Below, piece after piece: positions 2,084 to 23,074 of a DNA stretch of 64,000 nucleotides (the first letter of the stretch is position 1; every line of letters begins with the position of its first letter). Both the position numbers and the translations under genes were made by a program. The notes under the pieces were generated by a model, which saw nothing but the letters and a program-made list of their open reading frames with translations, had not been told where the DNA came from and did not search any database. Source of the DNA: Mariprofundus ferrinatatus (lineage in GTDB: Bacteria; Pseudomonadota; Zetaproteobacteria; Mariprofundales; Mariprofundaceae); assembly GCF_002795825.1 (NCBI RefSeq), contig NZ_CP018800.1, positions 930,001 to 994,000 on the forward strand. The letters are read 5' to 3'.

Positions 2084-3620
2084 TCAACCATCTATGAACA
2101 TTATCAGGATTCTCGATATTCCGAGAATGTTACTGCTGATTCTGTTCTTGATACTGGTGACATTTCTTGATCTCTCTGATCCCGACTACTTCTGGCATCT
2201 TAAAACAGGTGAAATGATATTTCTTAACGGTGCCTTGCCCGGTCATGATATCTTTTCATACACATTTGAGGGGCAGCCATGGGTGCTTCATGAGTGGCTT
2301 TTTCAGCTGCTTCTTTATCTTGTTCATGATGCTTTCGGCGACGCTGGCATCAAGGTGATGACGGCACTGATGGTCGTTCTGTTTCTCTATATCGTATTCC
2401 TTGCGACAAGCCAGATTAACAGGAACAGAGGTTTAACAGCGCTGCTGGTATTCGTTGCCAGCGCCCCGATTGCCTCTTTCATTGCACCGCGTCCGCAACT
2501 GATCAGTTATATCTTGTTCTCGCTAGCCATTCTCCTGCTTATACAATTTAAATATCGTCAGCAAACAAGGTTTCTGTTGCTGCTGCCTCTGATGATGGTG
2601 TTATGGGTAAATATGCATGGCGGCTACATCATCGGAATCGCCTTGCTCGTGCTGTTTTCCGGGTGTGAATTTGCATCTCATTGGAAGGCTGGTAGTTTGA
2701 ATGCGGAGGCTCGCCCTCGTCTGCTAAAGCTGGCATTGATCACGTTGCTTACAGTTTTGAGCTCTGCACTTAATCCTGATTATTTCAGCCATTGGCTCTA
2801 TCCGATACAGGTAATGTCCATGGAGGCCGCCAGGAGCCTGATTACAGAGTGGAGTAGTCCTGATTTTCAAACGCTTTCAGCCCAGTGCTATCTGCTGTTA
2901 GTGGTATGCTTCTTTTTCGTTTATTTCTATCGCCGGGCAACCTTGGATATTACTGAACTGGTAGTTCCGGTTGTGTTCATTGTGGCAGGATTTTCAGCTT
3001 ACCGTCATATGCCGTTTGCCATCCTATCAGGGTTGCCGTTTGTGGTGGCCTATCTGGCAAAAGGATCTGCTGTCTCTATTTCAGGGAGTGCTTTGGGGCA
3101 GCTGTACAGGAAACATATTGGCGGCGGTTCTCAGATTGGGTCAGGGGAGTATGTCCTGAACTGGCTGCTTGTAGTGATCGTAGCTGCGGGGATGTGGCTG
3201 TATGCACCGGTAGTCGGGAAGAGTCATCAGCAAGATCGCGATGCCACCATTCCTGTGAAGGCGACCGAGTTTGTCCTCAACACCGGTATATCAGGTCGCA
3301 TGTTCAACACCTATCAGTTTGGCGGATACCTGATCTATCGTTTGTATCCTGACCAGAAGGTGTTCATTGATGGCAGGGCTGATATGTATGGCGACAAATT
3401 TCTCATCGAGTACATGACTATCTACAGCGGTGGCACCGGGTGGGAAGGGGATTTTGATAAGTATGACATCGATTATGTGATCTGTTCGAGAGATGCGCCT
3501 ATCCTGTCGAAACTGATGCGCCGTGGTGATTTCAGGCTGGTTTATGACGATGAATACAATTCTGTATTACTTAAAAACAGACCTCGCCATGCCGCCATCA
3601 TTGCGAGATACGGGAGGTAA
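2070..3620 (+). CDS. Polytopic membrane protein, GT-C/RgtA-like, function unknown
   Basis: About 516 residues with roughly ten hydrophobic spans. Near the N-terminus is a DPDYFWHLKTGE motif followed by FSYT and HEWLFQ, in the position where GT-C glycosyltransferases carry a catalytic loop with acidic residues. The C-terminal 130 residues form a soluble domain (FNTYQFGGYLIYR, VFIDGRADMYG). No sequence feature proves catalysis. It overlaps the preceding GT2 gene by 14 bases and ends two bases before the methyltransferase start. Start codons at GTG 2052, ATG 2070 and ATG 2094 are all possible; none has a strong Shine-Dalgarno. Role in glycan assembly or transfer is inferred from the operon. Confidence 0.7.
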   Translation: MASNNQPSMNIIRILDIPRMLLLILFLILVTFLDLSDPDYFWHLKTGEMIFLNGALPGHDIFSYTFEGQPWVLHEWLFQLLLYLVHDAFGDAGIKVMTALMVVLFLYIVFLATSQINRNRGLTALLVFVASAPIASFIAPRPQLISYILFSLAILLLIQFKYRQQTRFLLLLPLMMVLWVNMHGGYIIGIALLVLFSGCEFASHWKAGSLNAEARPRLLKLALITLLTVLSSALNPDYFSHWLYPIQVMSMEAARSLITEWSSPDFQTLSAQCYLLLVVCFFFVYFYRRATLDITELVVPVVFIVAGFSAYRHMPFAILSGLPFVVAYLAKGSAVSISGSALGQLYRKHIGGGSQIGSGEYVLNWLLVVIVAAGMWLYAPVVGKSHQQDRDATIPVKATEFVLNTGISGRMFNTYQFGGYLIYRLYPDQKVFIDGRADMYGDKFLIEYMTIYSGGTGWEGDFDKYDIDYVICSRDAPILSKLMRRGDFRLVYDDEYNSVLLKNRPRHAAIIARYGR

Positions 3621-3622
3621 CG

Positions 3623-4354
3623 GTGGAGCGAAAAATCTACCAGTTGATGAGGGATGTGGAGGATACACACTGGTGGTTTACCGCGCGCCGGGAAATTGTT
3701 TCAAAGCTTCTGGGTTCGCTCTCGCTATCGCCCGAAATGAAGATACTTGATGTCGGATGTGGAACCGGCGGAAACTTCAACATGCTCTCTAAATTCGGGC
3801 AACTGGAGGGGCTGGAGTGTGATGAAGAAGCCCTGCTGATGGCCCGGAAAAGAGATGTATGCCCTGTGCTGCATGGGTCAATGCCTGAATGTGTTTCCAT
3901 TGAGGGTGAGAGATATCATCTGATTACCATGTTTGATGTGCTTGAGCACATTGAAGATGATCGAGGCACCATACTGAAGGCTTGGGAGCTTCTGCTACCC
4001 GGTGGAAGGTTGATGCTGACTGTACCCGCCTTTCCATTTCTGTGGAGTGAGCATGATACGCAGCATCATCATAAGCGGCGATATAAGAGGGGGCAGTTGG
4101 AACAGTTGCTGATCGATGCAAAGTTTGAGCCTGAATATCTTACCTATTACAACACACTGCTGTTTCCGATTGTTGTGGCTGCCCGGTTAATCAAGCGAGT
4201 AGCTGGAATTCACGGCGATGAAGAAGAACTGCCACCACCTCTGCTGAACCGTGCTCTTAAACAGATCATGGCCAGTGAGCGCCATTTGATGCCTGGCATT
4301 CGACTTCCATTTGGCGTCTCTCTGTTGGCTGTCTGCAGGAAGCCATTGCTGTAA
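3623..4354 (+). CDS. Class I SAM-dependent methyltransferase
   Basis: A 243-residue Rossmann methyltransferase. Motif I is ILDVGCGTGGN near residue 40; the acidic residue after strand 2 lies in LEGLECDEEAL; FDVLEHIEDD is motif IV; LLLPGGRLMLTVPA is the motif VI/strand 6 region. The HWWFTARREIV opening is typical of small-molecule or lipid/glycan methyltransferases found in polysaccharide clusters. The start is GTG 3623, preceded by GGGAGG that overlaps the stop of the upstream gene. Third gene of the 1082-4354 operon; the substrate is not known. Confidence 0.85.
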   Translation: MERKIYQLMRDVEDTHWWFTARREIVSKLLGSLSLSPEMKILDVGCGTGGNFNMLSKFGQLEGLECDEEALLMARKRDVCPVLHGSMPECVSIEGERYHLITMFDVLEHIEDDRGTILKAWELLLPGGRLMLTVPAFPFLWSEHDTQHHHKRRYKRGQLEQLLIDAKFEPEYLTYYNTLLFPIVVAARLIKRVAGIHGDEEELPPPLLNRALKQIMASERHLMPGIRLPFGVSLLAVCRKPLL

Positions 4355-19512: not shown

Positions 19513-20579
19513 TCGACGGCGAATTTCTTTCTCTCCAGCATGGCAGCAATTTCTGTCACGGCCATGGCGTAATTATAGGATGAATTGTAGCGCATGATGA
19601 CCTGAAAATTGTAATGCACCAGCGCAAATTGCTTTCCATGCTTCGTCTGCATTTCAATAATGCTGACCTTGTCATCATCCTGCCAGGGCAACGGAATCGG
19701 ATCGAAGAGCTTTGGCATGGTTTTGCGCAATTCTGCCAGAGTGACCCACTTCTCCAGTTTGCCTTTCGCCTGTTTGCGCCACTCTGTTGTCAGCTTTGTG
19801 CCGGCAGGCAGCCAGTAAGCCGAGGGTCGTCCATGCTGCCAGCCATGCTCCCTGAAGTAGTTGGCAACACTGGCAATAATGTCGGGCTTGGAATCGAATA
19901 CATTTCGAACACCATCGCCATCCTCATCCACGGCATAATCGCGGAATGATGTCGGGATAAACTGAATGGCACCGAAGGCACCAGCGTAGGATCCCTTCAG
20001 CTCATCCAGTTTGAGATGATCCTGAAGACTTATCTGGATGATGGCGCCCAGCTGTTGGCGGAAGAACTTGGCACGACGCGGGAAACCGGTGGAGAGGGTG
20101 TATAGGGAGTCGAGCACAGGTCGGCTGCCGTGTATTTCTCCGAACTTGGTCTCAATACCCAGAATGGCGGCAACAATGACAGAATCCACCCGGTATTTAT
20201 TCTCTATGGCAGTGAAGTGTTTGTGATTCTCTTTAAGATAAGCCCGCCCTTTTTCCTGCATGCTCTCTTTGACGAATAGGGGGCGGTACTTCAGGTAGGG
20301 TTCTGCTTCCCATTGGCGATTCATTCGTTCAATGATTTGCGGACGGAACGTGGCCGGTGCAATGATTGAACGTATGACATCGGCTTTGATGCCGGTTTCA
20401 GACGCAAGTTGGAGTGCCAGTTCTTCCCTGGATGTGTGTTGCTTGCCATCCGGCTTTTTGTCTGCGGCCTGTAGCTGAAACGGAAGCATAAGAATCGTGA
20501 GCCAAACCAGCATGAGTGACCTGATCAGGCACTTAAACGGGTGGCTCTGAAGTGTTGCGCAGGAGTGTCTGGAGTTCAT
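19509..20579 (-). CDS. mltB: Lytic murein transglycosylase B
   Basis: 356 residues with an N-terminal hydrophobic signal segment ending near LQAAD and no clear lipobox, so probably a soluble periplasmic form. The catalytic Glu lies in AILGIETKFGE; AGAFGAIQFIPTSF and DEDGDGVRNVFD are the typical following motifs, with GWQHGRP after. It cleaves the MurNAc-GlcNAc bond forming 1,6-anhydro ends. The ATG (20579) is only a few bases from the right end of the IS element, and no good ribosome site precedes it, so the insertion may have changed its expression. Confidence 0.9.
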   Translation of the reverse strand: MNSRHSCATLQSHPFKCLIRSLMLVWLTILMLPFQLQAADKKPDGKQHTSREELALQLASETGIKADVIRSIIAPATFRPQIIERMNRQWEAEPYLKYRPLFVKESMQEKGRAYLKENHKHFTAIENKYRVDSVIVAAILGIETKFGEIHGSRPVLDSLYTLSTGFPRRAKFFRQQLGAIIQISLQDHLKLDELKGSYAGAFGAIQFIPTSFRDYAVDEDGDGVRNVFDSKPDIIASVANYFREHGWQHGRPSAYWLPAGTKLTTEWRKQAKGKLEKWVTLAELRKTMPKLFDPIPLPWQDDDKVSIIEMQTKHGKQFALVHYNFQVIMRYNSSYNYAMAVTEIAAMLERKKFAVD

Positions 20580-20581
20580 GC

Positions 20582-20780
20582 ATGAATGGTAGCGGTAAAT
20601 AACCCCTGACTAAAGTCAGAGGCTTTATTCTCAAGCGTCAATGCCACTTGGAACATCAGGCGTATTTACGAACGCCTTCGATAGCGGGATGCCACTACCG
20701 ATCCGGGCAAGGTTTCGACTTGCATTCAAGTCGGCATGCGCCCGGAGACCACACAAGCACTCGAAACGATGTCGATCTCT
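20582..20780 (-). ncRNA. Candidate omega RNA (reRNA) of TnpB
   Basis: In IS605 elements the guide RNA spans the 3' end of tnpB and the right end and runs into flanking DNA. By position it would come from about 20780 down to 20582 on the minus strand and include the right-end hairpin. The guide would be the flank just beyond 20582, which contains the mltB start codon. This is inferred from family rules; the RNA fold was not computed and the 5' limit is a guess. Confidence 0.35.
20606..20619. repeat. Right-end subterminal hairpin of the IS605 element
   Basis: CTGAC, loop TAAA, GTCAG: a 5-bp stem beyond the tnpB stop. The matching left-end hairpin at 22222-22235 is related in loop layout. Confidence 0.65.
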
Positions 20781-21755
20781 ATTACCAAGCGATCCACATG
20801 CTGAGCAGGTTTGACTGGTGTATGCTGGGTTGACGAACTCCACTGTTATGCCAACCGCTTCGGCCTTATACTGGATAAAGGTTTGAAGCTGTCGGAATGC
20901 CCATCGATGTAGCCTGGTGCGCACACGTTTTCCTGCTTTGATGTTATCCCTGATGTGGTTGAGATCTTCCATCGTGATTTTGGATGCGCCAGTTTTCTGC
21001 GCTTCCTGGACGATGGATTTACTTGTTTCGTGATTGATGTGCTTCACACGCCGCTGTTCTTTGCCAGAGACCTGCCGGAGCTTCTGTTTGGCGCTCCGAC
21101 TGCCGTTGGACTGCAAACGACGACGCAAGGCAAGGTGCTTGTCGCGCCTGTGGCGCAAATCTCCGCCGCCATAGACCTTGCCAATACTGGTGGCGGCGAG
21201 ATTGTTTTCACCGACATCGACCCCCACGACTGGGCCGGATGTCAGTTTTTCAGTGTCCTCCTTTTCAACAACGAGGTTGAAGTACCATTTGCCTTTCCGG
21301 CAGATAAGCTCTGCTTCTTTCGGCATTCCACTGCGTAGCATCTCGTGCTGGTGTTGCCCCATAATCATTGGGACGGAAATCCTGCCTCCGAGAGTATATA
21401 GAGATACCATGTCACCCTTAATCGTATAGGTTCGCTTATCGAAGTGGATACTGGATTTCTTGAATCCGATGATCGGAACCGGCTTATCCTTGCGGATGCG
21501 GCCAAGCTCTTTCTGGGCCTTGTATGCTTTGCAGACCGAATAGATCGCGTTACACACCATCTGTGACCCCAGTGGCGTCGTTGATCTCAACAACGTATAT
21601 GCAAGAGCGTGAAGAGCTACCCGGTTCCAGCAACGGTGATCAGAAGCCACAGGGACGAGCTTATTGCATGCATCCACGTATGCGCTCTGCAGATCGCGAA
21701 GCGAGGCCGACTGTTCTGCTGTCACGTCCAGTTTAATTGATGCAGTGCGCATCAT
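20631..21755 (-). CDS. tnpB: TnpB, RNA-guided RuvC-like nuclease of IS605 element
   Basis: 374 residues, a usual TnpB length. The RuvC-like triad is complete: D180 (GVDVGENN), E263 (TMEDL) and D342 (HADLNASRN). The zinc ribbon has C317, C320, C333 and C335, split by the usual variable loop. An N-terminal helix-turn-helix/OB-like region precedes it. Known TnpB proteins cut DNA next to a target-adjacent motif using a guide from the right end, and help keep the element after excision. It starts 3 bases after tnpA ends, so it is probably co-transcribed. Confidence 0.92.
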   Translation of the reverse strand: MMRTASIKLDVTAEQSASLRDLQSAYVDACNKLVPVASDHRCWNRVALHALAYTLLRSTTPLGSQMVCNAIYSVCKAYKAQKELGRIRKDKPVPIIGFKKSSIHFDKRTYTIKGDMVSLYTLGGRISVPMIMGQHQHEMLRSGMPKEAELICRKGKWYFNLVVEKEDTEKLTSGPVVGVDVGENNLAATSIGKVYGGGDLRHRRDKHLALRRRLQSNGSRSAKQKLRQVSGKEQRRVKHINHETSKSIVQEAQKTGASKITMEDLNHIRDNIKAGKRVRTRLHRWAFRQLQTFIQYKAEAVGITVEFVNPAYTSQTCSACGSLGNRDRHRFECLCGLRAHADLNASRNLARIGSGIPLSKAFVNTPDVPSGIDA

Positions 21756-21758
21756 GAT

Positions 21759-22172
21759 TCAGCGCCTTTTGGTGACATGCTCTGTGCGCTCAATGTAGTG
21801 ACGTATGGTTTCAGCACTGACATTGCCTGCTGTTCCAACATAGTAGGATGGAGACCATAGGCTGCCTCCCCATAGCCGTTGTTTTAATTCGGGAAACTCG
21901 GTGAAAAGCTTTCGCGCCGATGCCCCTTTGAGAATCTTGATGGCGTCAGCTACGGCGACGGCCGGCGGAATCGTCAAAAACAGATGGATGTGATCAGGCT
22001 GTATTTCCTTTGCGATGACGGACCAACCTCGATCCTGGCATATCGCATCCAGAATACGCTCTGCTCCTGCTGCAACATCACCCACAAGAACATCATGACG
22101 GTACTTTGGGCACCACACCGCATGGTATGCAATTTGATAGACACAATTCCTGCTAAATAAGATATCAACCAC
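21759..22172 (-). CDS. tnpA: TnpA, HUH Y1 transposase of IS200/IS605 element
   Basis: 137 residues. The HUH motif is H61-I62-H63 (DHIHLF) and the catalytic tyrosine is Y126 in ETIRHYIERT, both present. Such enzymes cut and join single-stranded DNA at the ends recognised through hairpins, often during replication. The reading frame is full length, starting with a GTG at 22172. No frameshift or internal stop is visible. Confidence 0.93.
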   Translation of the reverse strand: MVDILFSRNCVYQIAYHAVWCPKYRHDVLVGDVAAGAERILDAICQDRGWSVIAKEIQPDHIHLFLTIPPAVAVADAIKILKGASARKLFTEFPELKQRLWGGSLWSPSYYVGTAGNVSAETIRHYIERTEHVTKRR

Positions 22173-22221
22173 AAGTCACATGGTATTAAAAACACCACTC
22201 AGCGCAAGTGCAATTCCTCCC

Positions 22222-22235
22222 GCGACTGAAGTCGC
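22222..22235. repeat. Left-end subterminal hairpin of the IS605 element
   Basis: GCGAC, loop TGAA, GTCGC: a 5-bp stem about 20 bases inside the inferred left boundary, between it and tnpA. Confidence 0.65.
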
Positions 22236-22396
22236 AGGTTTCCTTGCACAGTTCTATGAATGGTGGCAACAGGTAGTGGTAATCCGGAGCGTTGCTGACA
22301 ACTGATTAAGGCTCTCAGGGTTCACTGAGAACAAAGGTTAAAACAGTTTGGTGTATTGAATCATTCCGGATTTGTTTGCATTGAATCCGCCCGACT

Positions 22397-23074
22397 TTAA
22401 AAAACGAATTCGCGTTTTACCGGAACACCTTCCATATCCTGCAGCAGGGTTTCGAACATGGTGGTTTCCTGCCAGGCCAGGCCTGCCTTACGGCGATGCA
22501 CCAGCGAGACAACCGGATTGCTGCCGATGAAGGCCATGATCTGGCCGCCCTCTTTTAGCAGAGCTTCGATATGGGGAGGTATCTCTTTAACAGCAGCTCC
22601 CAGTACAATGGCATCAAATGGCTGCTTCATTTCGGCAAGCGAAGCAATGGCTTCAGCATCCATTGCATTGACCTGCACGATGGTGGCGTTGTTAATGCCG
22701 TGGTTGCTGATATTTTCCTGTGAGAGATCAGCAAGGGGGGCGTGGATTTCACAGCCGACCACTTCAGCAGCCTGCATGGCCAGCATCGTGGTCAGAAAAC
22801 CGGTGCCTGTTCCAATCTCAAGAACGCGTTCCCCACCTTCAAGCATCAGGGTTTGCATAATCATCGCTTCCTGAAGTGGCGTTAACATCTCCTGATCACA
22901 TGGAAGGGGGACATGTCCCTCCATGTAGGCAAGGCTGCGCACCTCCTTGGGCACGAAGTTTTCTCTCGGCATGGATTCGATCAGATCAAGTGTAGCCGGA
23001 TCAAGCACCTTGCAGCAGCGGATCTGGTACTCGACCATGTTACGTCGTGCGGACTGGAAGTCTGTGGCGGTCAT
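22397..23074 (-). CDS. pcm: Protein-L-isoaspartate O-methyltransferase
   Basis: 225 residues from ATG 23074, chosen because GAGGGGAG lies just upstream; an N-terminal extension to 23284 lacks support and reads like random sequence. SAM fold with VLEIGTGTGFLTTMLA (motif I), preceded by ENFVPKEV and HVPLPCDQEMLTPLQEAMIMQ, which fit Pcm. It repairs or marks isoaspartyl residues in the cytosol. Last gene before the IS insertion in a minus-strand series that begins at rlmN. Confidence 0.88.
   Translation of the reverse strand: MTATDFQSARRNMVEYQIRCCKVLDPATLDLIESMPRENFVPKEVRSLAYMEGHVPLPCDQEMLTPLQEAMIMQTLMLEGGERVLEIGTGTGFLTTMLAMQAAEVVGCEIHAPLADLSQENISNHGINNATIVQVNAMDAEAIASLAEMKQPFDAIVLGAAVKEIPPHIEALLKEGGQIMAFIGSNPVVSLVHRRKAGLAWQETTMFETLLQDMEGVPVKREFVF

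What the first reader, a model, noticed from the sequence alone, without database searches (positions are those of the whole stretch)
20582..22255. IS605 element whose guide RNA would match the start of mltB
Both tnpA and tnpB keep all catalytic residues. By family rules the guide is the flank beyond the right end, here the sequence over the mltB start codon. TnpB would then cut an empty copy of this site next to a TTCAT motif, favouring retention of the element.
Basis: inference. Interest (0 to 1): 0.5.

Follow-up and report, generated by a model that had tools for sequence, protein, structure and literature searches.

The report
IS605 transposon with its guide RNA

Summary
A complete IS200/IS605 element (tnpA + tnpB, minus strand) is present. 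Its ends are 20595-22255, not 20582-22255. The left end and TTCAT are confirmed: TTCAT precedes the left end in 7 of 8 elements examined. The predicted guide is CGCTACCATTCATGCA(TGAAC), the mltB leader running onto its start codon (guide bases 16-18). A structured omega RNA is strongly supported: z -5.7; 23 of 37 pairs with two-sided changes over nine sequences. TnpA and TnpB catalytic residues are intact. The IS-bearing copy has TTTAC, not TTCAT, beside the guide, so it should be spared. Cutting and retention are inferred from tested relatives; no expression data. A new member of a known kind. One curiosity: any mltB transcript begun upstream of the scaffold must carry the whole omega RNA as its leader.

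The parts
20595..22255 (-). Whole IS200/IS605 element, 1661 bp, left end at 22255, right end at 20595
   Evidence: Homology with three related elements ends at 20595; empty site in L004; family RE and LE
21759..22172 (-). tnpA, 137 aa Y1 HUH transposase (GTG start); H61, H63, Y126
   Evidence: Pfam PF01797 3.5e-40, NCBIfam transpos_IS200; aligned to 2xm3; positions
20631..21755 (-). tnpB, 374 aa; RuvC D180, E263, D342; zinc ribbon C317, C320, C333, C335
   Evidence: NF040570 2.1e-59; alignment with 8 homologs; positions
20595..20724 (-). Predicted omega RNA scaffold. The minimum-energy fold has five stem-loops: a small one at 20723-20707, then 20701-20678, 20677-20658, 20655-20626 and 20624-20601. 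The stems at 20701-20678, 20677-20658 (both inside the 3' end of tnpB) and 20624-20601 are in the family consensus; the one at 20655-20626 is not
   Evidence: RNA fold z -5.72; covariation; 5' limit of the RNA is arbitrary; model R1 finds 950595-950728 but was trained on it
20575..20594 (-). Predicted guide, CGCTACCATTCATGCATGAA (20 nt shown; 12-16 nt expected to matter by analogy with ISDra2)
   Evidence: Right flank after the corrected end; guide length from PMC8612924 and PMC10278001
22256..22260 (-). TTCAT, left-flank target motif / predicted TAM
   Evidence: Same motif before the left end in 7 of 8 elements examined, CTCAT in the eighth, L033
20582..20586 (-).
   Evidence: Aligned with TTCAG in the IS-free L004
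22202..22255 (-). Left end with subterminal hairpin
   Evidence: DNA fold of 22202-22275 shows it, z only -1.6; same shape by eye in L033, L034, L113
19509..20579 (-). mltB, lytic murein transglycosylase B, codirectional, ATG 15 nt beyond the right end
   Evidence: SLT_2 5.8e-81, TIGR02282 2.1e-76 though under its curated cut-off

Best explanation
An intact, single-copy IS200/IS605-family element inserted 3' of TTCAT in the pcm-mltB intergenic region of one lineage. TnpA moves it by single-strand peel-and-paste. The transcript of the 3' end of tnpB plus the right end folds into an omega RNA whose 3' extension, CGCTACCATTCATGCA..., is copied from the mltB leader. TnpB loaded with it would recognise TTCAT followed by that sequence, which is expected only in an element-free copy of this site, cut it, and so favour re-copying of the element from a sister chromosome. 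Shown by sequence: both genes with catalytic residues, the ends, the target motif, the RNA fold with covariation, the IS-free site of a congener. Inferred: expression, RNA processing, cutting, retention.
For: Gene identities and residues. Right end: blastn homology to L033, L034 and L113 stops at query base 1721 = window 20595 in all three; L039/L040 are 99.88% identical over 836 nt up to TTTAC, then different. RE GTT[AG]TTTAC in own and 8 of 9 homologs read, GTAGTTAC in L036. Empty site: L004 26/30 left and 21/24 right, gapless, only at end 20595 of 50 ends tried (next best 10/24); best other 24-mer of the window, both strands, 16/24. TTCAT before the left end in 7 of 8. omega RNA: z -5.72, 0 of 200 shuffles as stable; 94.3% of cells paired, 23 of 37 pairs with two-sided changes, covariation 0.648 against 0.226 shuffled and at most 0.138 slid. 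TTCAT plus the first 15 guide bases not found in the genome with fewer than two mismatches. ISDra2 precedent: RNA from the RE with about 16 nt of flank, TTGAT TAM equal to the TnpA target (PMC8612924, passages).
Against: No RNA or cleavage data. Rfam gave no relevant match, which only means the family is not curated. The structure was derived from the alignment on which it was counted. As single-stranded DNA, the right end with flank (20580-20640) does not show the full subterminal hairpin in its minimum-energy fold (only 5 pairs in the centroid; z -1.5), and the left-end fold is only modestly better than shuffles (z -1.6). The element is single-copy and no close tnpB (E<=1e-20) was found in 60 relatives, so current mobility is not demonstrated. 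Of 22 relatives' loci compared by blastn (L004-L025) only L004 keeps an alignable empty site, and it reads TTCAA with guide mismatches at bases 6 and 13, so it is not itself a clean target. In one in-vitro survey only 27 of 59 TnpBs showed TAM activity (PMC10278001).
Confidence: 0.85

Rival explanations
1. One reading: the element ends at the second TTCAT (20582) and the guide starts GCATGAACTCC, almost wholly inside mltB.
For: ATTCAT occurs both left of the element and at 20582-20587, preceded by similar bases.
Against: Homology to other copies ends 13 nt earlier; the empty site matches only 9/24 with this end; it would place TAM plus target in the element-bearing chromosome itself.
Confidence: 0.02
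2. The element is a dead passenger: genes look intact but nothing is expressed, and the guide is never made.
For: Single copy; no sigma-70-like site on the element's strand in 20500-22420 (a crude scan; two found, both on the other strand, 1.8 expected by chance); no expression data.
Against: Both frames open, catalytic residues kept, RNA helices kept; codirectional with the upstream gene, so read-through is possible.
Confidence: 0.13
3. The RNA and TnpB have been taken over by the host to control mltB (TldR-like repression).
For: The guide lies over the mltB leader and start codon.
Against: RuvC residues intact, unlike nuclease-dead TldR as I recall it; the chromosomal guide copy has TTTAC in place of the TAM, so TnpB should not bind there; a flank guide is expected for any insertion here; no close tnpB in 60 relatives.
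Confidence: 0.02

Closest known systems
ISDra2 (Deinococcus radiodurans) TnpA / TnpB-reRNA
   Same: tnpA then tnpB, subterminal hairpins, target motif at the left end serving as TAM, RNA from the 3' end of tnpB and RE with a flank guide (PMC8612924, passages); TnpA aligns over residues 7-129 with a solved transposase chain 2xm3 (that 2xm3 is ISDra2 TnpA is recalled)
   Different: TTCAT in place of TTGAT; TnpB 374 aa against 408; activity was measured there, only predicted here
'Derived' TnpBs of Nety et al. 2023
   Same: omega RNA with two 5' stem-loops plus a 3' stem-loop, RuvC-III of the type xADxN (PMC10278001, Results)
   Different: H where their motif has N, in own and all 8 homologs aligned (HADxN, or HSDxN in L033 and L039); I did not place it on their tree
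IS200/IS605 element of Methylomarinovum tepidoasis plasmid IN45P (L113)
   Same: 65% TnpB identity, TTCAT left flank, TTGTTTAC right end, codirectional gene annotated from 31 nt beyond the right end
   Different: An IS4-family transposase gene separates its left end from tnpA

Membership tests
IS200/IS605 insertion sequence | Y1 HUH transposase TnpA with HUH and Tyr | tested here: met
IS200/IS605 insertion sequence | Insertion 3' of a fixed short motif at the left end, no target duplication | tested here: met
   TTCAT in 7 of 8 elements; gapless empty site without duplication in the congener L004
IS200/IS605 insertion sequence | Subterminal hairpins in place of terminal inverted repeats | tested here: met
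   RE stem with covariation as RNA (helix 6) but not the best fold as DNA with flank; LE stem present (z -1.6) and seen by eye in homologs
TnpB RNA-guided nuclease | RuvC D-E-D and zinc ribbon | tested here: met
   the second cysteine pair is C-x-C, shared with L035-L038 and L113 (5 of 8 homologs)
TnpB RNA-guided nuclease | Structured omega RNA over the tnpB 3' end and RE | tested here: met
TnpB RNA-guided nuclease | RNA made with a flank-derived guide of about 16 nt | not testable with these tools
   no RNA data
TnpB RNA-guided nuclease | TAM-dependent cutting of the empty site | not testable with these tools
   no biochemical data
TldR (nuclease-dead TnpB regulator) | Loss of RuvC residues | tested here: not met
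   D180, E263, D342 present; the TldR definition is recalled

The most novel reading that the evidence does not exclude
The mltB messenger doubles as the guide RNA. With only 15 nt between the element and the ATG there is little room for a promoter, so any mltB transcript that begins upstream of about 20724 carries the complete omega RNA scaffold as its leader, with the start codon in the guide. Since AmaTnpB was shown to process its RNA at the 5' side only and to tolerate a 3' extension (PMC10278001), this TnpB could cut 5' of the scaffold and ride on the mltB mRNA, linking site surveillance to expression of a cell-wall hydrolase and perhaps damping its translation.
Probability: 0.12. Interest if true: 0.5.

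Novelty: new member of a known kind. Interest (0 to 1): 0.2.

Why it matters
It shows how the guide of a natural TnpB element can be mis-assigned when a copy of the target motif happens to lie in the flank, and how a congener's empty site plus other copies corrects it. The family (TTCAT motif, TTTAC end, covarying RNA in nine sequences) is a small, well-bounded set for TnpB work. A search for papers holding 'TnpB', 'TTCAT' and 'TAM' found none; that library holds open-licence papers only, so a description elsewhere is not excluded.

Tried and rejected
Rfam search of 20400-22500: one sub-threshold snoRNA match (E 0.044, 18.5 bits against a cut-off of 40), taken as chance. More copies in the phylum: none at E<=1e-75 in the other 397 of 398 genomes. 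DNA search of plasmids: only the Methylomarinovum element; of phages: one match over 12% of the query. Viral contigs: two distant TnpB matches, no help for the ends. R1 model in 61 genomes (own and 60 relatives): own locus plus one weak match in G052 with no tnpB or tnpA match in that locus, taken as chance or relic. GC skew to judge strand of insertion: weak (0.03-0.10), no conclusion. DNA fold of the right end: did not reproduce the full hairpin. RNA fold with the guide added (146 nt) keeps the stems (z -5.0), with three pairs engaging the last scaffold base and first two guide bases. Host regulation (TldR-like): rejected on intact RuvC residues and missing TAM. Structure prediction was not used. 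Literature search on Mariprofundus and IS gave nothing used here; a search with 'downstream gene' was seen as a listing only and gave nothing used here. Rows dropped: L087 (tnpB cut by the contig end) from the RE, LE and protein comparisons; L040 from the protein and RNA alignments as a near-duplicate of L039; L041-L086, L088-L112 and L114-L115 (distant or partial matches) were not aligned; L026-L032 were not compared for the empty site.

Full report
WHAT IS THERE. On the minus strand lie tnpA (21759-22172, 137 aa, GTG start) and tnpB (20631-21755, 374 aa). tnpA matches Y1_Tnp (3.5e-40) and transpos_IS200; tnpB matches OrfB_IS605, Cas12f1-like_TNB and guided_TnpB (2.1e-59). TnpA aligns over residues 7-129 with a solved transposase chain (2xm3), with H61/H63 and Y126 (positions). 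TnpB keeps D180, E263 and D342, present in own and all eight homologs aligned, and a zinc ribbon; its second cysteine pair is C-x-C, which five of the eight homologs share (L035-L038, L113), so it is a family trait rather than damage.

THE ENDS. The finding puts the element at 20582-22255. The left end holds, the right end does not. (a) A blastn of the element with 60-nt flanks against three related elements (L033, L034, L113; 67-69% DNA identity) stops in all three at query base 1721, i.e. window 20595, the C of TTTAC. (b) The two Thermomonas copies L039 and L040 are 99.88% identical over 836 nt, ending at the C of TTTAC, and differ beyond it. (c) Nine homologs with a right end were read: eight end GTT[AG]TTTAC, L036 ends GTAGTTAC. 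(d) The congener G011 has pcm and mltB next to each other without the element (locus L004). L004 was the only one of 22 relatives' loci (L004-L025) in which blastn found the pre-insertion site. The element is 1661 bp, 20595-22255.

TARGET MOTIF. TTCAT precedes the left end in own, L034, L035, L036, L037, L038 and L113; L033 has CTCAT: 7 of 8 examined. L035-L038 gave no tnpA match in the DNA held (L036 starts only 157 nt before tnpB), and I set their left ends by eye, from a TTCAT 15-20 nt before the conserved hairpin. L039 and L040 begin inside tnpB and could not be read; L087's left end was not examined.

GUIDE. Beyond TTTAC the minus strand reads CGCTACCATTCATGCATGAA. The mltB ATG (20579-20577) falls at guide bases 16-18. 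In ISDra2 the flank-derived part is about 16 nt (PMC8612924, passages), and Nety et al. state that ISDra2 TnpB uses only the proximal 12 nt (PMC10278001, Results); by analogy the effective target here is the mltB leader, ending at or just before the start codon. TTCAT plus the first 15 guide bases does not occur in the 2.30-Mb genome with fewer than two mismatches; the element's own locus has TTTAC (two mismatches, both in the TAM).

RNA. The 130 nt before the right end fold into five stem-loops at -53.1 kcal/mol against -33.1 (sd 3.5) for shuffles (z -5.72, 0 of 200 as stable). Across own and eight homologs (A2) RNAalifold gives 37 pairs, 23 with two-sided compensatory changes. In the count 94.3% of cells pair (72.2% in shuffles; 37.9-43.8% when partners are slid), and covariation is 0.648 (0.226 shuffled; at most 0.138 slid). 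The structure came from the same alignment, which favours it, but two-sided changes in 8 of 10 pairs of the 10-bp stem and 5 of 10 of the terminal stem are hard to explain otherwise. Consensus and single-sequence fold agree on three stems (20701-20678, 20677-20658, 20624-20601); they differ at the 5' end and at 20655-20626. The first two of those stems lie inside tnpB. Two 5' stem-loops plus a 3' stem-loop match the 'Derived' TnpB RNA described by Nety et al.. Rfam has no relevant match.

DISTRIBUTION. One copy in the genome; no tnpB relative at E<=1e-20 in 60 relatives or at E<=1e-75 in the other 397 of 398 phylum genomes. The nearest homologs (56-74% in the matched part) are in Nitrospirae, gammaproteobacterial, Acidithiobacillus, Chlamydiae and Verrucomicrobia assemblies, Thermomonas and a Methylomarinovum plasmid: horizontal spread is the natural reading. 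The host genus is unnamed in the tools; Mariprofundus is my guess, untested.

MECHANISM. Inferred from ISDra2: the donor joint left by excision, TTGAT plus flank there, becomes the target of TnpB, and repair can reinstate the element (PMC8612924, passages); in plasmids TnpB was reported to act as a gene drive for IS200/605 elements (PMC11870625, abstract). Nothing here shows that this TnpB is made or active, and in one survey 27 of 59 TnpBs were active in vitro (PMC10278001).

NOVELTY. A new member of a known kind. The one unusual aspect is geometric: 15 nt separate the element from the mltB ATG, the two are codirectional, and a crude scan found no sigma-70-like site on that strand in 20500-22420, so mltB may well be read through the element, with the omega RNA as its leader. 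This is inference from position only.

Noticed in passing
G000:C1:1122480-1122680 (L122:1393-2655, -): A second, distant TnpB-like protein (420-aa ORF; 30% identity over residues 123-353 of the element's TnpB) in the same genome; the only Y1 transposase found in the genome is the element's own tnpA.
   Followed up: partly
G000:C1:1835002-1835021 (L117): TTCAT followed by a guide match with two mismatches (guide bases 4 and 12), inside a gene that I take for the ATP synthase gamma subunit (name recalled from its sequence); probably chance, but a natural off-target candidate.
   Followed up: partly
L120 (G052:C4:3662489-3662617): A weak omega-RNA-model match (E 4e-5) ending in a hairpin and CTTTTTAC with no tnpB or tnpA match in the locus: relic right end or a terminator.
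   Followed up: partly
L113:1020-1072 and 2581-4173: In the Methylomarinovum plasmid element an IS4-family transposase gene lies between the left end and tnpA, i.e. one IS appears inserted into another.
   Followed up: partly
L034:3740-3994: In this homolog only residues 89-137 of tnpA match and the left end lies close by: tnpA looks truncated by an internal deletion while tnpB is full length.
   Followed up: no
L005 and L009 (G001, G015), between pcm and mltB: In two congeners roughly 700 bases lie between pcm and mltB where L004 has about 170; the extra stretch was not examined.
   Followed up: no
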